A DNA stretch of 64,000 bases from Catellatospora citrea. GTDB taxonomy: Bacteria > Actinomycetota > Actinomycetes > Mycobacteriales > Micromonosporaceae. Under the pieces are notes generated by a model, which had not been told where the DNA came from, made no database searches, and worked only from the letters and a program-made list of their open reading frames with translations. Positions 35,671 through 53,678 of the stretch are shown piece by piece (the stretch's first letter is position 1; the number at the start of each line of letters is the position of its first letter). The translations under genes and the position numbers were made by a program. The DNA is taken from positions 5,580,001-5,644,000 of the forward strand of contig NZ_RAPR01000001.1 of assembly GCF_003610235.1 (NCBI RefSeq), read 5' to 3'.

Positions 35671-36876
35671 TCAGGCGGGCAAAGCCTCCCGGCGGCGGCG
35701 CAGGAACTCCTGTTCGGCCGCGTTGGCGGTGCGGGCAGCGGCTGTCTCGTAGGCGGCCGCGGCCTCCGTGTCGCGGCCCAGGCGGTGCAGCAGGTCCGCG
35801 CGCACCGCGTGATAGAGGTGGTACCCGTCCAGGTCGAGCGTGTCCAGCACGGCCAGGGCCGGGCCGGGGCCGTCCACTTCGGCCACCGCGACCGCGCGGT
35901 GCAGCGCCACGACCGGGCTCGGCGTCAGCGACAGGAGGCGGTCGTAGAGGGCCAGCACGCGCGGCCAGTCGGTGGACGCGGCGTCCGGGGCGGCGGCGTG
36001 CACCGCGCTGATCGCCGCCTGGAGCTGGTACGGCCCCAGCTGTCGCCGCCGCAGGCACCGGCCGACCAGGGTCAGCCCTTCGGCGATCAGCGCCCGGTCC
36101 CAGCGGCTGCGGTCCTGTTCGGGCAGCGGCACGAGCTGCCCGGTCGCGGTGGTGCGGGCCGCCCGGCGGGCTTCGGCGAGCAGCATCAGGGCGAGCAGGC
36201 CCAGCACCTCCGGTTCGTCGGGCATCAGTTCGGCGAGCAGCCGCCCCAGGCGTACCGCCTCCTGGCACAGGTCGGCCCGCACCAGCGCGTCCCCGGAGCT
36301 GGCCGTGTAGCCCTCGTTGAAGACGAGGTAGACCACGGCGAGCACGGAGCGCAGGCGGGCGGGCAGGTCGGCGTCGCGCGGCACCCGGTACGGGATGCCC
36401 GCGCCCTTGATCTTGTTCTTGGCCCGGACCAGGCGCTGCGCCATGGTGGCCTCGGGCACCAGGAACGCGTGCGCGATCTCGGCGGTGCTGAGGCCGCCGA
36501 GCAGCCGCAGCGTCAGCGCCACCTGGGCGGTGACCGCGAGCGCCGGATGGCAGCAGGTGAAGATCAGGCGGAGCCGGTCGTCGGGCACGGGCCCCTCCTC
36601 GGCCGGTGGGTCCGGGGCGAGCAGCAGCGCGGCCTGCGCGTGCCGGTCGTCGCGGGTGGCCTCGCGCCGCAGCCGGTCCACGGCGCGGTTGCGGGCCGTG
36701 GTGATGATCCAGCCGGCCGGGCTCGGCGGCACGCCGTCGTCCGGCCAGCGCCGCACCGCCTCGGCGAACGCGTCCTGGACGGCCTCCTCGGCGAGGTCGA
36801 TGTCGCCGAAGGCGCGCACCAGCACGGCCACCGCGCGGCCGTACTCCGCCCGGAAGACGCCGTCGACGTCGGCCAA
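35671..36876 (-). CDS. ECF sigma factor, ECF42-like (DGPF-linked, C-terminal TPR-like extension)
   Basis: This 401-residue sigma factor starts at TTG 36876 ([13 protein letters not shown]). The start is chosen because CGAGG lies seven bases upstream, within the end of the preceding gene, and the two overlap closely. Region 2 ([23 protein letters not shown]) and region 4 ([28 protein letters not shown]) are clear. About 200 residues of C-terminal helical extension with TPR-like pairing follow, as is typical of ECF42. No anti-sigma gene is adjacent. It likely directs expression of the DGPF gene with which it is coupled. Confidence 0.9.
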
Positions 36877-36877
36877 C

Positions 36878-37225
36878 TCAGGCCTCGGAGTGCAGCGGGC
36901 GCACCTCGATCGGCAGGGTGACCGCGCGGGCCGCCTTGGCCGCCCAGGCGAGCGCCGCGTCGAGGTCCGGCGCCTTGATGATCCAGAACCCGCCGATGTG
37001 CTCCTTGCCCTCGACGTACGGCCCGTCGGTGAGCAGGATGTCGTCACCCTTGGCGCGGACCACCGTGGCGGTCTCCGGCGGCAGCAGCCCGCCCTTGACG
37101 ACGGTCACGCCGGCCGCGTCGAGCTCCGCGTTCAGCACGTCGAGGGCCCGCAGCACGGGGTCCAGAACCTCGGGCGGCGGCGGCCCGCCGTCGGGCTGGT
37201 AGATGCTGAGCAGGTACTGCTTCAT
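36878..37225 (-). CDS. YCII-related (DGPF-domain) protein
   Basis: This 115-residue protein starts [14 protein letters not shown] and carries [16 protein letters not shown], the DGP(F) signature of the family. The family is a small dimeric fold related to the YCII active-site proteins, found with ECF42 sigma factors in actinobacteria. It sits directly upstream of that sigma gene, with only one base between stop and start. The biochemical role is unknown. Confidence 0.92.
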
Positions 37226-37406
37226 GACGGCGCTCCTCGCCTCGGCCGCGGCTGACACTCCACCCTCTATACGAACGGGGTCTGCCCGCATCGACACCCT
37301 CCGGCACGAAAGAAGACGGTGGTGTGGCGCACGTATCGATCGGCACCCCTTCCCGCAGCTGCGGGTGCGGCGGTAACGTGAGCGCTCCCCGCCCCCGGAG
37401 AGTTCC

Positions 37407-37613
37407 ATGCCTGCCACCGAGCCCGTCGTCGCCGATCGGTTACTGCTGGTCAGCGTGCTGACCGTCGGCGGATACGTGCTGGAGCTGTCCGAGACGGTGA
37501 TGGTCCGCCCGGGGCAGCGCACCTGGGTGCAGGGCAGCGCCTTCTTCGTGCAGTCGCCGAACGGGCAGACGCGCCGGGTCGAGGGCGACGTCCACCCGTT
37601 CTGCCACGACTGA
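37407..37613 (+). CDS. Small hypothetical protein
   Basis: This 68-residue protein starts MPATEPVVADRLLL, with CCCCGGAGAGTTCC upstream as a good ribosome site. It has several beta-strand-like stretches (VGGYVLELSETVMV, GSAFFVQSPNG) and ends in HPFCHD. There is no signal peptide or membrane helix. It ends four bases from the convergent FtsX gene. No family is recognised. Confidence 0.6.
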   Translation: MPATEPVVADRLLLVSVLTVGGYVLELSETVMVRPGQRTWVQGSAFFVQSPNGQTRRVEGDVHPFCHD

Positions 37614-37616
37614 GCG

Positions 37617-40382
37617 CTACTCCTGGGCGAGCAGCGTCGACAGGCGCAACCGGCGTACGGACAGGGCGGGCAGCACCGCGGCGAGCCCGGACAGCACCAC
37701 CCCCGCCAGCGCAGCGGCGGCGGTGACCGCCACGGCCGTCGCGGGCACGGCGGCGGCGAACCGGTCGACGAAGAACAACCCGACACCCGCTCCGGCCAGC
37801 GCGCCCGCGGCGCCGATGAGCACGCCCTCGTACGCGATGAGGCGCGTCAGCGCCCCGTCGCCCCACCCGGCCGCCTGCAGTGTCGCCAGCTCGGCCGAAC
37901 GCTCCCGCACGTTGAGGTAGAGCACGTCGGCCAGCGCCAGCACGGCCAGCACCAGGGTCGCCGCCACCGCGACGGTGTCCACGGCGCGGACCCGCAGCGA
38001 CACCGCGTCGCCGAGCAGGGTGCCGGTGACGTTGCCGTGGAAGACCCAGGTCAGGGTCAGCAGCGTGGTGAACGCCCCGACGCCGAGCGCGACCGCGACG
38101 GCCGCCAGCAGCGTGCGGCCCGGCCTGCGCCGCGTGTTGCGCAGTGCGGCGGACAGCACGGTGTGCCCGGTCCGCGTGCTCCGCGCCCGGCGGACCGGGG
38201 AGACCAGCGGGGCCAGCGCCGTGCCGGGGTGGGCACGGGCGGCCTGGACCGCCGGGACGACCGCGGCGACCACGGCCAGCAGCAGGGCCAGCGGCACCGC
38301 GAGCAGTGCCTGCGAGGTTCCGGCGGGCACGTCCACCACCCGGCTCAGCGGGACCGCGAGCCCGGCGGAGACCAGGCCCGCGGCGAGTCCGACGACGGCG
38401 ACCTCGCCGGTGACCAGGGCGGCGAGCCGGTATCGGGGCCAGCCGACGCAGGCGAGCACGGCCAGTTCGCGCCTGCGGTCGCGGACCGCGGCGGTGGTGG
38501 CGTTGGCCAGGAACAGCACGCAGACCACCAGGATCAGGCCGAACAGCAGCACGCTCTTGCGGTCGATCGCCTCCATGATCGCCACAGCGACGCCCTTGCG
38601 GCTCCACAGCTCGGTCAGCCGCAGCTCAGGCCGCCCGAGCGTGCCCGCGGCGAGTGCGACCTGCTGCGGTTGCAGGGAGGAGCCGACGGTGATGTCGACG
38701 TCGAGGCCGGTCGTCGTGCTGATCTCCTCGGCGATGCGCCGGATCCGCTCCCGGGTCAGTTCGTCGAGGGTGCGCACATCGGCGACTCGGACGCGGACCG
38801 CGGAGATCGCCTGGTCCGCTGCCTTCGCGCCGATCAGGCCGGGGACCGCGGCCAGCGTGGTGATGAGTTGCGGGGCCGAGATCAGGTAGCCGGCCGGGTT
38901 GCTGGACGGGGCCAGCGGGCGCTCGCCGAGCAGTTCCCGGCTGCGGGCGTCGGCTCCTTCGGCCTCCGGCGACCGGTACGTCTCCAGCGGCACCCGGCTC
39001 AGCCGCGAGAACCCCTGCAGTTTCGCGGGGTCGAAGACGCCGACGGGGTCGGCGGCCATGAAGGGCTCGGCGTTGACCACCTTGACGTCCCGGAAGGCCG
39101 TGTCGAAGACCAGGCTCGGTGTCGCGCCGCCGCCCATGACCGGGCTGTTGGCCATCCAGGTTCCCGGAGCCTCCGCGCTGACCACGGGCCGCAGGGTGCC
39201 GTCGGCAGCCGTGTCGTACCGGGGCAGCCCGCTGCGGAGCACGAAACTGACGCTCAGCGTCGGCTGCTCGAAGACGGCATCGGGCTGGGGTGCCCGGGTG
39301 TCGAAGGTGCGGGTTCCGGCCGGGATGAGGGAGGTCTTGTCGAGCCAGGCGTGCACGACGTCGCTGCGCGTGCCCGGCATCGCGCGGACCAGGTCGTCGT
39401 CGACGGTGGACAGGGTGACCCGCAGGGTCTCGTCGACCTGCGGCAGGGCCGCGGTCAGCACGGGCAGCCGCACCTTGCGCGCCCGGTCGCCGGTCTCGTC
39501 CTGGCGCAGGTAGCGGCCCGAGACGAGAGCCTGGTCCAGGCCCAGCAGGCGGGCCTCCGCGGCCGGATCGACGGCCGCGAGACCGACGATCGACAGCCAC
39601 CACACGTTGACCACGATGCGGTCGGTGGCGTACTGCATGTCGCCCGCGGCGGCGCCGTCGAGGAACCGGCCGTCGGGGAGCAGGCTGTAGACGTCGAACT
39701 GCGGTGTGCGCAGCCCCGCGTAGTCCTCCTGCCAGCTCGACAGGGACGCCCCGCACACACGCTTGCGCGCGCCGTCCTCCTGCACCTCCAGCACGCCGGT
39801 ATCGCAGTACTCCGTGTCCTGCGCGATGGTGCCGTCCGTGTAGTAGCTGGTGTTGCCGACGCTCCTGCCGGTGTCCAAGCCGATGATCGGCCGCCGGGTG
39901 ATGTAGACGTAGGCGCTGCCGCGTACGCCGCGGGACAGCCCGCGGTCGGACAGGAACACGGGGTCGAGCCGGATCAGCTGGCGGGTCTTGCTCCGGTCCA
40001 CCAGATCGGTGACGTCCACCTGAGCGGTGCTCGACACGAGCGTGGAGCCCAGCGTCGCGATCGGAGCCGCCACCTCGACGCCCTGCACCGCCTGGATCGC
40101 ACGGTACTGCGCCGTGGTGATGCCGCCGTTCGTGCCGGACAGCTGGTTGGGCGCGACCGTGCCGCGCTCGTTCTCGACCGCGGTGCGGGCGCCCTTCGGG
40201 CGGACCAGGATGTCGTACGCCCCGCGGAAGTTCGCGTCCACCTCGCCGGTGACCTGCAGCCGCGAGGTGTTGACGGTGCCCGTGAGCACGGTGAAACCGG
40301 TGGTGGCCAGCAGGATCGCGGCGAACAGCGCGCTGCTGCGCCACAACCGGCGGCGCAGCTGCGACCAGATCATGGTGATCAC
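37617..40382 (-). CDS. FtsX/MacB-type ABC transporter permease, large form
   Basis: This 921-residue membrane protein starts MITMIWSQLRRRLWRSS. One helix (about 17-35) is followed by a very large extracytoplasmic region (about 40-600), then two FtsX-type blocks of membrane helices near 610-760 and 800-921, ending LRLSTLLAQE. Four such helices per block are typical. The ATPase gene overlaps it by four bases. The exported substrate is unknown. The adjacent PadR regulator suggests drug or envelope-stress control. Confidence 0.9.
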   Translation of the reverse strand: MITMIWSQLRRRLWRSSALFAAILLATTGFTVLTGTVNTSRLQVTGEVDANFRGAYDILVRPKGARTAVENERGTVAPNQLSGTNGGITTAQYRAIQAVQGVEVAAPIATLGSTLVSSTAQVDVTDLVDRSKTRQLIRLDPVFLSDRGLSRGVRGSAYVYITRRPIIGLDTGRSVGNTSYYTDGTIAQDTEYCDTGVLEVQEDGARKRVCGASLSSWQEDYAGLRTPQFDVYSLLPDGRFLDGAAAGDMQYATDRIVVNVWWLSIVGLAAVDPAAEARLLGLDQALVSGRYLRQDETGDRARKVRLPVLTAALPQVDETLRVTLSTVDDDLVRAMPGTRSDVVHAWLDKTSLIPAGTRTFDTRAPQPDAVFEQPTLSVSFVLRSGLPRYDTAADGTLRPVVSAEAPGTWMANSPVMGGGATPSLVFDTAFRDVKVVNAEPFMAADPVGVFDPAKLQGFSRLSRVPLETYRSPEAEGADARSRELLGERPLAPSSNPAGYLISAPQLITTLAAVPGLIGAKAADQAISAVRVRVADVRTLDELTRERIRRIAEEISTTTGLDVDITVGSSLQPQQVALAAGTLGRPELRLTELWSRKGVAVAIMEAIDRKSVLLFGLILVVCVLFLANATTAAVRDRRRELAVLACVGWPRYRLAALVTGEVAVVGLAAGLVSAGLAVPLSRVVDVPAGTSQALLAVPLALLLAVVAAVVPAVQAARAHPGTALAPLVSPVRRARSTRTGHTVLSAALRNTRRRPGRTLLAAVAVALGVGAFTTLLTLTWVFHGNVTGTLLGDAVSLRVRAVDTVAVAATLVLAVLALADVLYLNVRERSAELATLQAAGWGDGALTRLIAYEGVLIGAAGALAGAGVGLFFVDRFAAAVPATAVAVTAAAALAGVVLSGLAAVLPALSVRRLRLSTLLAQE

Positions 40383-47411: not shown

Positions 47412-48851
47412 TCAGCCGGCCGGCATCACCGCCAGCCACCAGTCGCCGGTCAGGTGTTCGGGCTCGACGGTGATGGTGAGCTGATCCGGGTACTGGGCGT
47501 TCAGCCCGCGCACCTTCGCGTCGTCGCCGGCGGGCGCGAACTCCGACTGCCAGGTCTGCTGGTCGTAGTCCCACCAGGTCTTCACGTCGACGAGCACGCC
47601 GTTGATGCGCAACCGCAGCACGCCCGGCGTCTGCGCGCGCGCCATGATGCGCACCCCGCCGCTGCGCCAGTCGAGCGTGGCGGTGCGCGGGCCGTCGGCG
47701 GTGAGCAGCACGCTGGTGCCCGTCGCGTACGCGGGCCGGTCCAGCGGCGTCAGCGTCGCCGGCCGCTCGGGCAGGTCGACCTTGTCGAACCCGACGGACT
47801 CGCCGACGAGGAGCGCGAGCACACCGTCGGCGGGCACCTCCGTCCTCGGTTCCGTGACCGGGGTCGTGGGGTCCGGGTAGACGTACGACACGTCCAGGTC
47901 GAAGGAGACCGTCACGGGCTTGCCCACCTCGACGCCGGCGGCGCGCAGGGTGTCCGGGGCGGGCGTGAGCCGGCTGTCGAAGGACAGGCCGTCGGTCGCG
48001 CAGTCCACCGCGCCCATCGACCTGCCGCCGACCCACACCTTGACCTCCAGCGGCACCTCGTAGCCGGAGTGCGTGCAGGCGGGGAAGAACGCCAGGTCGA
48101 GAGTGGACGGAGTGAAGGTGATCTCGCCGGACCGCTCCGGGAAGCCGGCCTGCGCCCGTTCGGTGATGCGGTAGCCCTGGTGGAAGTCGGGCACGCCGGC
48201 CAGCCCGTCGGTCTCGCGGCCCGGTGCGATGAGGTAACCGGAGATGCCCGCCAGGATCACGGCGAGCGCCGCCGCGGCGGAGGCGAGCCGGCCGCGGCGC
48301 TGCTGCACGATGCGGCGGCGTACGCCGGCCAGCCGCTCGTTGCCGGCCGGGGCGTCCTCGTCGACCGCGGGCAGGGCCTGCAGGTCGGGGTCGAGCCGCA
48401 GCCGGGCCAGGCCCTTGGCGGCGTAGCTCTTCACCGAACCCGGCGAGATGTCGAGCGCCTTGGCGATCTCGGCCTCGGTCAGGTCCTCGAAGTAGCGCAG
48501 CACCAGCACGACCCGCTGCTGGCGGGACAGCCGGCCGAGGGCCCGCCACACCTCGTCGCGCTCGTCGACGGCCGACTGCGGCGCCGCGATCGGCTGCTCG
48601 GGCAGCGACTCGGCGGGGCGCTCACCGTTCCACCGGCGGCGCCACCAGGACCGGTACGTGTTGAGCAGCACCTGCCGCACGTACGGTTCCGGGTCGCCGT
48701 GGATGCGCCGCCACGCCGACCACGACTTGACCAGCGCGGTCTGCAGCAGGTCCTCGGCCAGCGCGTGGTCGCCGGTGAGCAGGTACGCGACGCGCAGCAG
48801 GTGCCGCGACCGCGCCATCACGAACTCGTCGAACTCCGCCGTGCCGGCCAT
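47412..48851 (-). CDS. Membrane-tethered ECF sigma factor A
   Basis: This 479-residue protein joins an ECF sigma factor to the membrane. Region 2 (residues 1-75, FDEFVMARSRHLLRVAYLL, LAEDLLQTALVKSW) and region 4 (about 98-155, LVLRYFEDLTEAEIAKALDI) are complete. A single membrane helix (189-210) follows, then an extracytoplasmic beta-rich domain. Cys259 and Cys284 match positions in the two paralogues. RIMARAQTPG and ITVEPEHLTGDWW are shared C-terminal motifs. ATG 48851 follows AGGAGG. It is the last of three tandem genes. Such sigma factors could be released on a signal from outside. Confidence 0.88.
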   Translation of the reverse strand: MAGTAEFDEFVMARSRHLLRVAYLLTGDHALAEDLLQTALVKSWSAWRRIHGDPEPYVRQVLLNTYRSWWRRRWNGERPAESLPEQPIAAPQSAVDERDEVWRALGRLSRQQRVVLVLRYFEDLTEAEIAKALDISPGSVKSYAAKGLARLRLDPDLQALPAVDEDAPAGNERLAGVRRRIVQQRRGRLASAAAALAVILAGISGYLIAPGRETDGLAGVPDFHQGYRITERAQAGFPERSGEITFTPSTLDLAFFPACTHSGYEVPLEVKVWVGGRSMGAVDCATDGLSFDSRLTPAPDTLRAAGVEVGKPVTVSFDLDVSYVYPDPTTPVTEPRTEVPADGVLALLVGESVGFDKVDLPERPATLTPLDRPAYATGTSVLLTADGPRTATLDWRSGGVRIMARAQTPGVLRLRINGVLVDVKTWWDYDQQTWQSEFAPAGDDAKVRGLNAQYPDQLTITVEPEHLTGDWWLAVMPAG

Positions 48852-48861
48852 GCTCCGCAAG

Positions 48862-48893
48862 CCTCCTGATCGCCGCCGTCAGCAACACGTACC
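48862..48893 (-). promoter_or_regulatory. Conserved 32-bp upstream block of sigma gene A
   Basis: These 32 bases match 28 of 32 with 51949-51980 upstream of sigma gene C. The block includes AGGAGG and GTTGCTGAC, with CAACC just upstream on the minus strand. Retention suggests a shared promoter or autoregulated sigma site as well as duplication. Confidence 0.6.
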
Positions 48894-48946
48894 GGTTGGA
48901 CGGTGGCGTCGGTGGGGTGGTGTCGCGAGAATTTACCGCCCGTAGG

Positions 48947-50347
48947 TTACGTCCCGGGCTGGTCGACGGTGAGCCACCAGTCGCCCGTCATGAACTCGGG
49001 CTCCACGGTGATGACCACGGTCTGGCCGGTGACGAGGTTGGGCAGTCCCAGCCGCGCCTCGGCGGTCGTGCCGAAGTCCAGGAATCCGGCCCGGTTGCCC
49101 TGCTCGTAGTCCCACCACCCGAAGTTCTCCACGGCGATGCCGTTGATGGAGACGAGCAGGCTGCCCGGGGTCTGCGCGCGGGCCCGGAACGTCAGCGAAC
49201 CGCGCCACTGCACGGTGGTGACCTGGGCCTCGGGGCCGTAGAGCCGGATCCGGCCCGGCGCTGCGTCGGGATACGGCAGCGGGTCCAGGCTCGCGGGTCG
49301 CGACGGCAGCGGGTACTCGTCGAACGGCAACCGCTCGGCGACGGCGACCGCCATCACGCCGTCGGCGGTCCGCTGCCCGGTGTCGGCCGCCGCGCCGACG
49401 AAGCTCAGCGTGATCCGGGCGGGCTCGCCGACGCGCAGTTTGCGGGCCGCCGCGGTGCGCGCGTTCATGGTGCGCGCCACGGTGAACTCCATTCGGGAGC
49501 CGCAGGTGACCGTCGTGACATAGGCGCCGTTGACGCTCAGGTCGACCTCGGCCGGCAGCAGGCCGGTGGCGCAGGCCGGGAACAGGGTCAGGTCGGTGCT
49601 GCCCGGTGTCCACACCAGCTCCGCCGTGCCCTGGGAGAAGTTCGCCTGCAGCCGGGCCACGATGCGGTGCCCCCGGTACAGCTCGGGCAGGTCGGCGACG
49701 TCGCCGCGGTCCAGGCCGGGCGCGAGCGCGTAGCCCGAGATCGCGGCGATGACGATCAGGCAGGCCGCGGCCGCCGCGGACAGCCGGGTGCGGCGGCGCT
49801 GGATGATCCGCCGCTGGACGGCGACCAGCCGCTCGTTGCCCGCCGGCGCGTCGTCGTCGGGCTGCGGCAGTGCGCGCAGCGAGGGGTCCAGGCGCAGGGT
49901 GGCCAGGCCCCGGGAGGCGTACGCCTTCACGGCGCCCGGCGAGATGTCCATGGTCCGCGCGATCTCCGCCTCGGTGAGGTCCTCGAAGTACCGCAGCACC
50001 AGCACCACCCGCTGCTGGCGGGGCAGCCGGTCGAGCGCACGCCACAGCTGGTCCCGCTCGTCGACCGCGCTGTGCGGCGACGGTCCGGCGTGCTCGGGCA
50101 GCGTCTCGGTGGGCCGCTCGCCGTGCCAGCGCCGCCGCCACCACGAGTTGTACGTGTTGACGAGCACGCGGCGCACGTACGGCTCGGGGTCGCCCTGGAT
50201 CCGCTTCCACGCCGTCCACGACTTGGCCAGCGCGGTCTGCAGCAGGTCCTCGGCGAGGATGTGGTCGCCCGAGAGCAGGTACGCGATGCGCAGCAGGTGG
50301 CGCGAGCGCACCGTCACGAACTCGTCGAACGTCGCCGTGTCGGCCAT
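48947..50347 (-). CDS. Membrane-tethered ECF sigma factor B
   Basis: This 466-residue protein is a paralogue of its neighbours: MADTATFDEFVTVRSRHLLR, region 4 with LTEAEIARTMDISPGAVKAY, one helix (189-210) and an outside domain with Cys259 and Cys282. Shared end motifs are FRARAQTPGSLLVSING and ITVEPEFMTGDWWLTVD. The sigma part is nearly identical to the others for the first 165 residues, while the outer domain is far more diverged, as if sensing different signals. A 94-bp gap follows to gene A. The upstream block of A and C is absent. Confidence 0.88.
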   Translation of the reverse strand: MADTATFDEFVTVRSRHLLRIAYLLSGDHILAEDLLQTALAKSWTAWKRIQGDPEPYVRRVLVNTYNSWWRRRWHGERPTETLPEHAGPSPHSAVDERDQLWRALDRLPRQQRVVLVLRYFEDLTEAEIARTMDISPGAVKAYASRGLATLRLDPSLRALPQPDDDAPAGNERLVAVQRRIIQRRRTRLSAAAAACLIVIAAISGYALAPGLDRGDVADLPELYRGHRIVARLQANFSQGTAELVWTPGSTDLTLFPACATGLLPAEVDLSVNGAYVTTVTCGSRMEFTVARTMNARTAAARKLRVGEPARITLSFVGAAADTGQRTADGVMAVAVAERLPFDEYPLPSRPASLDPLPYPDAAPGRIRLYGPEAQVTTVQWRGSLTFRARAQTPGSLLVSINGIAVENFGWWDYEQGNRAGFLDFGTTAEARLGLPNLVTGQTVVITVEPEFMTGDWWLTVDQPGT

Positions 50348-50470
50348 GCTCCCGTGCCCTTCCGTCTGCGGTGTCGAGATCCTGTACGACCTGGGCCGCC
50401 GCCGGGGTTGCGCGCGATGCGCGAGTTTCCGGCGGGGGCCGCCACAGCCGCCGCGGCGGCGCCCGCCGGA

Positions 50471-51940
50471 TCAGCTGGGCGGCTGCGGGTAGATCACGAC
50501 GTGCCAATCGCCGACCAGCTGCTCCGGCTCGACGGTGACGGTGATCTTCGAGCCGGGCCGGGGCGTGAATGGGACACCGTTCGCGTACGGGTACCCGGGA
50601 TCGAGCGGGGCGTTGACGCTCCCGGCCAGGTTCATGAAGGGCGCGCCGAAGTCCAGGTGGGTCAGCACCTTGCCGTCGACGAGGACGCGCAGGCGGCCGG
50701 GGGTCTGTGCCTGCGCCGACAGCACGAGGGGACCGGCCCAGGTGATCGCGGTGCTGTGCGCGCCTCCGGACTCCAGCACGGTGACGGTGGCCGGGTCGAC
50801 GCCTTCGGGCGGGGTGCGGTCCAGTGGCGCGCGGGACGGGTCGGTGCCCGGCCACGGCAGCTCCGCGTACGTGGCGAGCTCGCCGACCGCGACCGCGACG
50901 GTGCCCTCGGGCAGCGGCTCGTCGCCGTGCTGGCCGAACGCGAGGTCCAGCGCCACGGTGGCCGGACGGCCCGCGACCAGACCCAGCGCCGCCGGGTCCA
51001 GCGTGATGAAGAAGCCGTTGAAGCCCATGTTCGTGTCGCCGGTGCAGATGTCCATGCCCCTCAGCTGCCCGTTCACCCGGACCTGGATGGCCAGGGTCTG
51101 CAGCTGCCCCAGGTGGCGGCAGGCGAGGAACAGGGCCTCCGGGCGTCCGCTGGGCGTCCAGGTGAGTGCCGGGTCGAGGTGGGGCGTGTAATCGTGCTGG
51201 GCGACCGTGGCCAGGCGGTAGTAGTCGAGGTCGACGAACCCCTGCGGGCTTTGCGCGAACTGCGGCACCTCGATCGGGAACGCGGGCTCCGGCAGCGCCC
51301 GCGCCCGCAGGTGCGGCAGCAGCGCGTACGCGGCGATGAGCGCCAGCGCGACCAGGCAGGCCGTCGCGACCCCGGCGATGCTCCGGCGGCGGCCCCGCGC
51401 GATGCGGGTGCGCACCGCGGTCAGCCGCTCGTTGCCCGCCGGCCCGTCGTCGGGCTGCGGCAGCTCCCGCAGGCTCGGGTCCAGCCGCAGCTTCGCCAGC
51501 CCTTTGGAGGCGTGCGTCTTCACCGAGCCCGTGGAGATGCCGAGGGTCCGGGCGATGTCGGCCTCGCTGAGGTCCTCGAAGTAGCGCAGCACCAGGACGA
51601 CCTTCTGCTGCCGGGGCAGCCTGGCCAGGGCGCGGCGGAGCTGGTCGCGGTCGTCGACCGCGGTGTGCTGCGACGGCCCGGCGTGCTCGGGCAGCGTCTC
51701 GGTGGGGCGCTCGCCGTGCCAGCGGCGTCGCCACCAGGAGTTGTACGTGTTCGCGAGCACCCGCCGCACGTACGGCTCCGGGTCGCCGTGGATGCGCCGC
51801 CAGGCCGACCAGGACCGGGCCAGGGCGGTCTGCAGCAGGTCCTCGGCCAGCGCGTGGTCACCGGTGAGCAGGTAGGCCACCCGCAGCAGGTGCCGCGATC
51901 GCGTCACCACGAACTCGTCGAACGTCGCCGTCTCGGCCAT
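50471..51940 (-). CDS. Membrane-tethered ECF sigma factor C
   Basis: This 489-residue protein is the first gene of the array. MAETATFDEFVVTRSRHLLR opens the sigma part, with region 4 LSEADIARTLGISTGSVKTH. The membrane helix is at 187-208. The extracytoplasmic domain has the longest linker and Cys274/Cys299 at the equivalent place. LSAQAQTPGRLRVLVDG and VTVEPEQLVGDWHVVIYP close it. ATG follows AGGAGG by eight bases. It diverges from the arsC-like gene over 87 bp. Function as a full sigma factor is expected from the intact regions 2 and 4. Confidence 0.88.
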   Translation of the reverse strand: MAETATFDEFVVTRSRHLLRVAYLLTGDHALAEDLLQTALARSWSAWRRIHGDPEPYVRRVLANTYNSWWRRRWHGERPTETLPEHAGPSQHTAVDDRDQLRRALARLPRQQKVVLVLRYFEDLSEADIARTLGISTGSVKTHASKGLAKLRLDPSLRELPQPDDGPAGNERLTAVRTRIARGRRRSIAGVATACLVALALIAAYALLPHLRARALPEPAFPIEVPQFAQSPQGFVDLDYYRLATVAQHDYTPHLDPALTWTPSGRPEALFLACRHLGQLQTLAIQVRVNGQLRGMDICTGDTNMGFNGFFITLDPAALGLVAGRPATVALDLAFGQHGDEPLPEGTVAVAVGELATYAELPWPGTDPSRAPLDRTPPEGVDPATVTVLESGGAHSTAITWAGPLVLSAQAQTPGRLRVLVDGKVLTHLDFGAPFMNLAGSVNAPLDPGYPYANGVPFTPRPGSKITVTVEPEQLVGDWHVVIYPQPPS

Positions 51941-51948
51941 CCCCGTCG

Positions 51949-51980
51949 CCTCCTGATCGTCCCGGTCAGCAACAGGTACC
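51949..51980 (-). promoter_or_regulatory. Conserved 32-bp upstream block of sigma gene C
   Basis: This is the partner of 48862-48893 (28 of 32 identical), containing AGGAGG and GTTGCTGAC, with CAACC further upstream near 52003 on the minus strand. The promoter type is unknown, though an AAC-containing -35 would fit ECF sigma control. Confidence 0.6.
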
Positions 51981-52027
51981 GCCTGACCGGCGGGTCAGGT
52001 TGAACCGCTGTTCGAGGAGATCCCGGG

Positions 52028-52453
52028 ATGGGTGAGGATAGCGGCGTGGAGATGTGGAACAACCCTTCGTGCTCGAAGTGCGCCGCCGCCCGGGAGACGT
52101 TCGAGCTCAACCAGGTGCCGGTGAAACTTCGGCCGTACCTGGACGCGCCGCCGACCGCCGCCGAGCTGGCCGACGTGCTGGACCGGCTGGGCGCACAGCC
52201 GTGGGACATCTGCCGGCTGGGCGAGCCGGCCGCCGCCGAGCTGGGCCTGGCCGACTGGAGCCGGGACGAGGCCGACCGGCCGCGCTGGATCGCCGCGATG
52301 GTCGCTTGTCCGCAGCTCATCCAGCGCCCGATCCTGCTGCTCGACGACGGCACCGCGATCGTGGGGCGTACCCCCGAAGCCCTGGCGCAGGCCCTGGCCA
52401 CGCCGCCCGCGCTAGCCTCGGCACGGCCGCTCTCCACGCCGATCACCGACTGA
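52028..52453 (+). CDS. arsC: Arsenate reductase (glutaredoxin-type, ArsC-like)
   Basis: This 141-residue thioredoxin-fold protein has NNPSCSKCAAARETF with catalytic-position Cys15 and Cys18, and LIQRPILLLDDGTAIVGRTPEAL, the Arg-containing end of ArsC. Canonical ArsC has a single Cys in NPRCSKS, so the extra Cys is a difference. It starts at ATG 52028 after GAGGAGATCC. The transporter follows one base after the stop. Together they look like an arsenic-resistance pair, but Spx-like redox roles cannot be excluded. Confidence 0.8.
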   Translation: MGEDSGVEMWNNPSCSKCAAARETFELNQVPVKLRPYLDAPPTAAELADVLDRLGAQPWDICRLGEPAAAELGLADWSRDEADRPRWIAAMVACPQLIQRPILLLDDGTAIVGRTPEALAQALATPPALASARPLSTPITD

Positions 52454-52454
52454 C

Positions 52455-53678
52455 ATGGCACAGGCGATCGTCCCGGCGGAGGCCGCCGGGACCGGGCCGA
52501 CGCGTGCCCGGAACAGGTTCAGCGGGCTCGACCTGCTCGCGTTCGCGCTGCTAGGCACGGGGCTGCTCGCGGTGGTGACGGGGCTGGTGCCGTCTGCGGG
52601 CGCGCTGGCGACCGGCCGCCGCATCCTGCCCATTCTGGTCTTCCTGGGCACGGTGATCGTGCTGGCGGAACTGGCCGCGCGGGCCGAGCTGTTCGACGTG
52701 ATCGCGACCCGGCTGACCGGCTGGGCCCGTGGCCGCAACGTCGCGCTGTTCGCGCTGTGCTTCGCCTTCGCCGCGGCGACCACCGCGCTGCTCAACCTCG
52801 ACACCACGGCGGTCCTGCTCACCCCGGTGATGCTGGCCATGGCGGCGCGGGCCGGCGTGCCGCCGCTGCCGCTGGCGATGACCACGATCTGGCTGGCCAA
52901 CGGCGCGAGCCTGCTGCTGCCGGTGTCGAACCTGACGAACCTGCTGGCCGCGGACCGGATCGGGCTGTCGGTGGGCGGGTTCGCCGGGGCGATGGTCCTG
53001 CCGCAGGCGGCGGTGCTGGTCGCGGTCGGCGCCTGCCTGTGGATCTTCTACTGGCGCGGCAACCCGGCCCGGTACACCCCGCCTGCGCCGGTGCGGCCGC
53101 GCGACCGCCGGCTGCTGCTGGCCGCGGTCGCCGCCTGCACGGTGTTCCTGCTCGGCGTGCTGTGGGGCGAGCGGCTGGAACTGGTGTCGGCGGTCTGCGC
53201 GCTGGTCCTGATCGCCGCGTACGCCCGCTGGGACCGAGCCGCGCTGCGCTGGAGCCTGCTGCCGTGGCGGCTGCTCGTGCTGGTCACCGGCCTGTTCCTG
53301 ACCGTCGAGGCGGTCGGGCGGCTGGGCCTGGCCGACCTGATGAGCGCCATGATCGGCGGCGACCCCGGCGCGGTGGGCGTCGTGCGGGCCGCGGTCACCA
53401 GCGGGCTGCTCGCCAACGTCGTCAACAACCTGCCCGCGTACGTGGCGGGCGAGGCCGTGGTCGCCGCCGGACACCGCGACCAGTTGCTCGGCCTGCTGCT
53501 CGGGGCGAACGTCGCCCCGCTGGTGACCGCGTGGGCGTCGCTGGCCACGCTGCTCTGGGCGCAGCGCTGCCAGGCCGCCGGGGTGCGCATCGGCTGGGGC
53601 AGGTTCGCGGCGACCGGGGCGGTCACCGGGGCCGCCGCGTTGGCCGCCGGGACCGCCGTCCTGCTGCTGGCGCGGTGA
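52455..53678 (+). CDS. arsB: ArsB/SLC13-type membrane transporter (arsenite efflux candidate)
   Basis: This 407-residue integral membrane protein has about eleven helices. TTALLNLDTTAVLLTPVM and ANVVNNLPAYVAGE are the re-entrant loop signatures of the ArsB/NhaD ion-transporter superfamily. It begins MAQAIVPAEAAGTG one base after the arsC-like stop, so the two are an operon. This supports arsenite export, but the superfamily also covers other anions. No ArsR gene is next to them. Confidence 0.85.
   Translation: MAQAIVPAEAAGTGPTRARNRFSGLDLLAFALLGTGLLAVVTGLVPSAGALATGRRILPILVFLGTVIVLAELAARAELFDVIATRLTGWARGRNVALFALCFAFAAATTALLNLDTTAVLLTPVMLAMAARAGVPPLPLAMTTIWLANGASLLLPVSNLTNLLAADRIGLSVGGFAGAMVLPQAAVLVAVGACLWIFYWRGNPARYTPPAPVRPRDRRLLLAAVAACTVFLLGVLWGERLELVSAVCALVLIAAYARWDRAALRWSLLPWRLLVLVTGLFLTVEAVGRLGLADLMSAMIGGDPGAVGVVRAAVTSGLLANVVNNLPAYVAGEAVVAAGHRDQLLGLLLGANVAPLVTAWASLATLLWAQRCQAAGVRIGWGRFAATGAVTGAAALAAGTAVLLLAR

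What the first reader, a model, noticed from the sequence alone, without database searches (positions are those of the whole stretch)
47412..51940. Three tandem ECF sigma factors each fused to one membrane helix and an extracytoplasmic Cys-pair domain
Each protein carries complete sigma regions 2 and 4, one helix at about residue 188-210, and an outer domain with two Cys 23-25 residues apart (259/284, 259/282, 274/299). The sigma parts are almost identical while the outer domains have diverged. No anti-sigma gene is nearby, so the sensor and sigma factor appear to be one molecule. Some ECF groups are known to carry membrane tails, but a three-gene array with this conserved Cys pair looks unusual. 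The simplest model is that related signals or redox state release sigma parts reading the same promoters.
Basis: partly seen in the sequence, partly recalled or inferred. Interest (0 to 1): 0.85.

Follow-up and report, generated by a model that had tools for sequence, protein, structure and literature searches.

The report
Membrane-fused sigma factors in tandem array
Three neighbouring genes each encode a transcription switch welded to its own outside-the-cell sensor, and relatives in which the two halves are still separate, overlapping genes suggest how the weld arose and what the sensor half is for.

Summary
Genes A (47412-48851), B (48947-50347) and C (50471-51940), all minus strand, each encode a SigE-family (TIGR02983) ECF sigma factor, one membrane helix and an outer domain with a Cys pair; the closest proteins are from Catellatospora. 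The pair is kept in 85 of 86 outer domains and lost as a pair in the other, so a structural disulfide is likelier than redox sensing. AlphaFold2 gives two beta-sandwich domains (pLDDT 90.7).

The decisive finding lies outside the window: the membrane-plus-outer protein also exists as its own gene directly behind a sigma gene, once in this genome (31 kb away) and in 48 cases overall, 44 with a four-base stop/start overlap. Fused and separate forms need one change on outer-domain and sigma trees; rooted with other SigE paralogues, the fused forms are one clade inside the separate ones (moderate support). Both carry a promoter-like motif (CAACC-N16-18-[CG]GTA) before the sigma start in 69 of 94 cases, against 0 of 24 other SigE paralogues. 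So these are probably autoregulated one-protein transmembrane sigma systems, made by fusing a sigma gene to its membrane partner. Restraint by the partner and release by proteolysis are inferred. New variant of a known kind.

The parts
47412..48851 (-). gene A: SigE-family sigma factor fused to one membrane helix and outer domain (479 aa)
48381..48851 (-). gene A, sigma regions 2 and 4 (residues 1-157)
48228..48284 (-). gene A, membrane helix (about residues 190-208)
47415..48221 (-). gene A, outer domain (269 aa): two beta-sandwich domains in the AlphaFold2 model, Cys259 and Cys284
48947..50347 (-). gene B: the same architecture (466 aa)
49877..50347 (-). gene B, sigma regions 2 and 4 (residues 1-157)
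49721..49777 (-). gene B, membrane helix (about residues 191-209)
48950..49717 (-). gene B, outer domain, Cys259 and Cys282
50471..51940 (-). gene C: the same architecture (489 aa)
51470..51940 (-). gene C, sigma regions 2 and 4 (residues 1-157)
51317..51373 (-). gene C, membrane helix (about residues 190-208)
50474..51313 (-). gene C, outer domain, Cys274 and Cys299
51976..52002 (-). promoter-like motif CAACC-N17-GGTAC, 35 nt before gene C
50384..50410 (-). promoter-like motif CAACC-N17-CGTAC, 36 nt before gene B
48889..48915 (-). variant motif CCACC-N17-GGTAC, about 37 nt before gene A; one mismatch, not counted as a hit
   Evidence: read by eye from the sequence printed

Best explanation
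A, B and C are single-protein transmembrane signalling systems. Each is an ECF sigma factor held at the membrane by its own membrane helix, with an outer sensor of two beta-sandwich domains stabilised by a disulfide. They descend from a two-gene system in which the sigma gene overlaps, by four bases, a gene for a single-pass membrane partner that most likely restrains the sigma factor. One fusion in this lineage made partner and sigma one protein; the partner's N-terminal motif (DLKxLLDERS) is no longer recognisable, and the copies then diverged mostly in the sensor. A signal at the outer domain (possibly a glycan or envelope ligand; a guess) frees the sigma part, most likely by proteolysis in or near the membrane helix, and the freed sigma switches on its own and its siblings' genes from CAACC-N16/17-GGTA promoters. 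Shown by computation: architecture, homology to a separate partner gene, one-event pattern, Cys pair, shared motif. Inferred: disulfide, direction of the change, restraint, autoregulation, release. Not known: ligand, protease, other targets.
For: Architecture. Separate-gene homologue in the same genome with an ATGA overlap. Of 101 ORFs with the outer domain, 46 fused, 48 with a sigma gene directly upstream, 7 neither; 44 of 48 separate pairs overlap by exactly four bases. One change of state on the outer-domain tree (support 81) and on the sigma tree (86); with 24 other SigE paralogues as outgroup, the 42 fused sigma parts are one clade (89) inside the separate ones. N-terminal motif in 46 of 48 separate partners, 0 of 46 fused linkers. 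Cys pair 85 of 86. Promoter-like motif in 69 of 94 upstream regions (28 of 46 fused, 41 of 48 separate), mean 0.2 and maximum 3 of 94 in 200 first-order random controls, 0 on the other strand, 0 of 24 other SigE paralogues. A site-2-type protease gene exists in the genome (PF02163, 162.7 bits), as in all 14 control genomes.
Against: No experiment or structure shows that the partner binds or inhibits the sigma factor; the cytoplasmic segment of one partner (43 residues) has no match among solved structures. The branch supports are moderate (81, 86, 89; none starred), the outgroup branch is weak (73), and long branches were flagged. On the outer-domain tree the midpoint root, used for drawing only, falls among the fused rows, which by itself would favour fission. 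The N-terminal motif was defined on the separate partners and the fused forms are one lineage, so 46 against 0 is not 46 independent losses; a paralogous fusion (L015) seems by eye to keep such a segment. The promoter motif was found in the sequences in which it was counted, 25 of 94 lack it in strict form, and gene A is one of these. Release by proteolysis has no direct evidence; the sigma part could act while tethered.
Confidence: 0.64

Rival explanations
1. The sigma part works while still tethered: the outer domain changes the position or oligomeric state of the sigma part, as in membrane-bound one-component regulators such as CadC/ToxR (recalled), and no cleavage occurs.
For: A low-confidence, probably disordered stretch (about residues 159-178) separates sigma region 4 from the helix, so reach is conceivable; the own genome holds 12 fused SigE-family proteins among the loci read (4 of this clade; 8 others), so tethering is not rare.
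Against: Core polymerase and promoter would have to come to the membrane within a short linker (sigma end to helix 30-38 residues); the one membrane-fused ECF that the review read calls experimentally characterised, IutY, is released by proteolysis (PMC8999054, passages).
Confidence: 0.2
2. Redox sensor: the two Cys are a regulatory disulfide that opens or closes with external redox state.
For: Both Cys kept in 85 of 86 outer domains.
Against: Cys numbers are even in 81 of 86 outer domains (43 with two, 38 with four; 4 have three, 1 has five), and in the one exception both Cys of the pair are gone together: the pattern of structural disulfides in exported proteins. The pair is equally kept in the separate partners. 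Nothing links it to signalling.
Confidence: 0.08
3. The membrane partner is not an inhibitor but an activator or co-sensor, or a protein merely co-expressed; the fusion only locates sigma synthesis at the membrane.
For: No anti-sigma domain was recognised by Pfam or NCBIfam in the three fused proteins or by Pfam in 86 outer domains; 8 of 30 SigE-family loci in a class sample had no such partner by the criteria, so some of these sigma factors live without it.
Against: Four-base overlap in 44 of 48 pairs. In this genome, 16 of 16 unfused SigE paralogues among the 24 read are followed by a gene for a protein with a membrane helix near residue 40, 14 of them with that overlap. Overlap and fusion fit a stoichiometric restraint.
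Confidence: 0.2

Closest known systems
ECF52 (SCO4117 of Streptomyces coelicolor), ECF48 and ECF53
   Same: Actinobacterial ECF sigma fused at its C-terminus to a membrane segment and outer part; release by proteolysis proposed; autoregulation proposed for SCO4117 (PMC8999054 and PMC5826349, passages).
   Different: Those carry a zinc-finger (anti-sigma) domain between sigma and membrane, and ECF52 a proline-rich arm and carbohydrate-binding module. Here no zinc finger is found, the linker is 30-38 residues, and the outer part matches no Pfam family above noise.
IutY of Pseudomonas putida (ECF243)
   Same: Sigma and membrane-bound regulator fused in one protein (PMC8999054, passages).
   Different: IutY belongs to an iron-starvation cell-surface signalling system; no FecR-type domain was found here, and actinomycetes lack the outer-membrane receptor that such systems use (recalled).
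Class II anti-sigma factors (CnrY of Cupriavidus metallidurans)
   Same: The two helices of CnrY wrap the sigma factor CnrH (PMC7406223, passages); the separate partners here have a median of 41 residues before the helix, with two conserved stretches.
   Different: No sequence match for the one partner segment searched and no complex modelled; the resemblance is of size and layout only.
RsgI biomass-sensing anti-sigma factors (Clostridium thermocellum)
   Same: Membrane-spanning regulators that sense substrates and are cut in the membrane helix by RseP (PMC12203970, abstract start only); one weak Foldseek row, 6qe7, is titled 'anti-sigma factor domain-containing protein'.
   Different: Separate anti-sigma proteins, not fused to the sigma factor; the fold match is poor (TM-score 0.23, rmsd 20).
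SigE-family (TIGR02983) sigma factors with separate membrane partners in actinomycetes
   Same: The family to which A, B and C belong. In 30 loci (30 of 59 matching genomes of a class sample, the own genome included), 19 show the four-base-overlap partner, 3 a nearby one, 8 none.
   Different: Here the partner is fused, with a particular outer domain found in 58 of 354 Micromonosporaceae genomes and in 6 of the other 393 genomes of a class sample, one of them weakly.

Membership tests
SigE-family ECF sigma factor (TIGR02983) | whole-protein score above the curated cut-off | tested here: met
   190.6, 188.1, 189.2 bits against 141.55
ECF sigma factor | regions 2 and 4 complete | tested here: met
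   Sigma70_r2 and Sigma70_r4_2 above cut-off in all three
ECF52/ECF48/ECF53-type membrane-fused sigma | C-terminal membrane segment fused to the sigma factor | tested here: met
   one hydropathy peak per protein and a long helix in the model of B; 45 of 46 fused homologues have exactly one peak
ECF52/ECF48/ECF53-type membrane-fused sigma | zinc-finger (ZAS) domain between sigma and membrane | tested here: not met
   no zinc-finger family at E<=1 in A, B or C; no Cys in the sigma part of 40 of 42 fused proteins and none seen by eye before the helix in the printed linkers
ECF52 | carbohydrate-binding module outside | tested here: inconclusive
IutY-type (ECF243) sigma/FecR fusion | FecR-type anti-sigma domain | tested here: not met
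   no such Pfam family at E<=1 in A, B or C
Class II anti-sigma domain (CnrY-like) in the separate partner | two short helices wrapping sigma regions 4 and 2 | tested here: inconclusive
   size and two conserved stretches fit; one partner segment has no sequence match to solved chains; no complex was modelled
ECF group number (Casas-Pastor 2021) | group-specific HMM score | not testable with these tools
   paper not held; its models are not among the libraries

The most novel reading that the evidence does not exclude
Most SigE-family sigma factors of actinomycetes belong to an unrecognised two-part transmembrane system: a sigma gene overlapping by four bases a membrane partner with a minimal (about 40-residue) anti-sigma segment and an exchangeable outer sensor. 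The partner has repeatedly been fused to its sigma factor, giving one-protein systems. The window array is a snapshot of that step, in which covalent linkage replaced the docking motif DLKxLLDERS.
Probability: 0.38. Interest if true: 0.78.

Novelty: new variant of a known kind. Interest (0 to 1): 0.56.

Why it matters
Membrane-fused ECF sigma factors are known, but their origin and triggers are mostly guessed. Here the same sensor occurs in separate and fused form, in 10 of 11 Catellatospora-group genomes side by side, with a common promoter-like sequence, so the role of the partner, the need for its docking motif and the cost or gain of fusion can be tested directly. If the overlapping partner is a general inhibitor, it would give a regulator to many SigE-family sigma factors whose neighbour is now labelled 'hypothetical protein'.

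Tried and rejected

Rows dropped: loci were fetched for 52 of 58 matching genomes (not G076, G099, G242, G302, G341, G350, nor a few weak second matches of other genomes). That search scored only 6 candidates per genome, so copy numbers are lower bounds. Of 101 outer-domain ORFs, 7 had no sigma gene and 7 more were partial; the trees use 87, alignment A3 uses 86. Two of the 48 'separate' rows (L091, L130) look like broken or mis-started genes, and L091 is counted once as fused and once as separate; L069's sigma frame ends early. Those three plus L129 (start at -7) are the four without the four-base overlap. The 24 other SigE paralogues are those among the 30 loci kept, not all of the 50 or more in the genome.

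Full report
What is there. Three minus-strand genes at 47412-48851 (A), 48947-50347 (B) and 50471-51940 (C) each encode a protein of 466-489 residues. About the first 157 residues are a complete ECF sigma factor of the SigE family (TIGR02983). The nearest database proteins, 75-92% identical to the outer part of B, are named Catellatospora. Sigma parts of A, B and C are 75.5-82.7% identical, outer parts 26.2-37.5%.

The separate form. A search of the window's own genome with B found a fourth fused copy (D, C1:7904873, 52% identity) and, at C1:5663918 and 5662860, a sigma-only gene with the outer part as its own gene. Sigma stop and partner start share ATGA. A profile of the five outer parts matched 58 of 354 Micromonosporaceae genomes in 14 of 44 genera (at most 6 candidates scored per genome). 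Stretches were fetched for 52 of the 58 genomes. Of 101 ORFs with the outer domain in these and the window, 46 are fused to a sigma factor, 48 have a sigma gene directly upstream on the same strand, 7 neither. In 44 of 48 the overlap is exactly four bases. Of the 11 genomes of the window's genus, 10 hold one separate pair, and all hold 1 to 4 fused copies in the loci read. Outside the family, four of six matching genomes (G595, G437, G413, G368) have the separate form, one (G373) a weak sigma match (38 bits) in the same frame as the outer domain, and one (G610) a partial, weak match.

Direction. On trees of the outer domain and of the sigma part (87 rows each), fused and separate need a single change (SH-aLRT 81 and 86). 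With 24 other SigE-family paralogues of this genome as outgroup, the 42 fused sigma parts form one clade (89) inside the separate ones, so fusion is the likelier derived state. None of these supports is starred, the outgroup branch has 73, long branches were flagged, and the midpoint root of the outer-domain tree, used for drawing only, falls among the fused rows. The separate partners begin with a conserved stretch (typically DLKxLLDERS): 46 of 48 match a pattern drawn from them, and 0 of 46 fused linkers do. Because the fused forms are one lineage this counts as one loss, and a paralogous fusion (L015) seems to keep such a segment (by eye).

A common promoter-like sequence. The 150 bases before each sigma start were searched for a repeated spaced motif. 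CAACC-N16-18-[CG]GTA occurs in 69 of 94: 28 of 46 fused, 41 of 48 separate; spacer 17 in 52 and 16 in 17; in 66 of 69 the -10-like element lies 30-49 bases before the start. Two hundred first-order random controls give a mean of 0.2 and a maximum of 3 of 94; the opposite strand gives 0. None of 24 other SigE paralogues of the genome has it, though many show CAACC-like elements by eye. Of the four distinct sigma genes found beside the outer domain outside the family, two have it (L143, L144) and two do not (L145, L146). B, C, D and the separate sigma gene have it; A and its orthologues have a one-mismatch form (by eye). The motif was discovered in the same sequences and relatives are not independent, but the excess is far beyond either effect. 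Positive autoregulation is the natural reading; it is called common among ECF sigma factors and proposed for SCO4117 (PMC5826349, passages).

A wider rule. Of 24 other SigE-family sigma genes of this genome that were read (of 50 or more), 8 are fused to a membrane helix and a different outer part, and the 16 others are all followed by a gene for a protein with a membrane helix near residue 40, 14 of them with the same four-base overlap; four of the 16 show a second hydropathy peak further on. In 30 loci from a class sample (30 of 59 matching genomes, one being the own genome), 19 show the overlap partner, 3 a nearby one, 8 none; two of the 8 (L198, L201) show a similar ORF whose helix falls under the threshold. 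The listings of the literature searches, most aimed at fused or tethered sigma factors, and passages of three papers showed no account of this rule. The main classification paper (Casas-Pastor 2021) is not held, so it may be noted there.

How it probably works. The partner lies where an anti-sigma factor usually lies, has a fitting topology and became fused to the sigma factor. Its cytoplasmic part is only about 41 residues. Class II anti-sigma factors such as CnrY wrap a sigma factor with two helices, and the class I survey in the same paper removed domains under 50 residues as possible class II (PMC7406223, passages), so such short segments would be passed over by it. In the fused form a linker of 30-38 residues holds the sigma part at the membrane. 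The review read gives proteolysis as the shown route for IutY and the expected one for ECF48, ECF52 and ECF53 (PMC8999054, passages and tables). The genome has a site-2 protease homologue, as have all 14 control genomes. I therefore place release by proteolysis above tethered action, without direct evidence.

Verdict. The redox idea is not supported. The probable ancestry from an overlapping sigma/partner gene pair and the shared promoter-like sequence are the new content.

Noticed in passing
window 35671-37047 (-) and 36878-37786 (-): A second, unrelated ECF sigma with a long C-terminal part beside a DGPF/YCII-like ORF (named by eye), resembling the ECF42 arrangement; the ECF42/YCII link is in PMC8999054.
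   Followed up: no
window 52028-53678 (+): A gene with a below-cut-off ArsC match and a CitMHS/ArsB-like transporter gene, divergent from gene C.
   Followed up: partly
L008, L009, L010, L011, L012, L013, L014, L015 (own genome): Eight more SigE-family sigma factors fused to a membrane helix but with different outer parts; seven of the eight have an even number of Cys after the sigma part.
   Followed up: partly
L063:6145-6927 (-): In genome G084 the array contains an outer domain without an in-frame sigma part, possibly a decayed copy.
   Followed up: no
L092, L094, L095: Stand-alone ORFs of 349-351 codons with a membrane helix and the outer domain, no sigma gene directly in front, about 1.7-1.9 kb from a fused sigma gene.
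   Followed up: no
L167 (G000:C1:1148065): A lipoprotein-like alpha/beta-hydrolase gene (named by eye) starts 36 bases after a CAACC-N17-GGTAG site: a candidate for a regulated gene other than the sigma genes.
   Followed up: no
own genome G000: 113 Sigma70_r2 matches in one genome, and 50 SigE-family matches among the 50 candidates scored.
   Followed up: no
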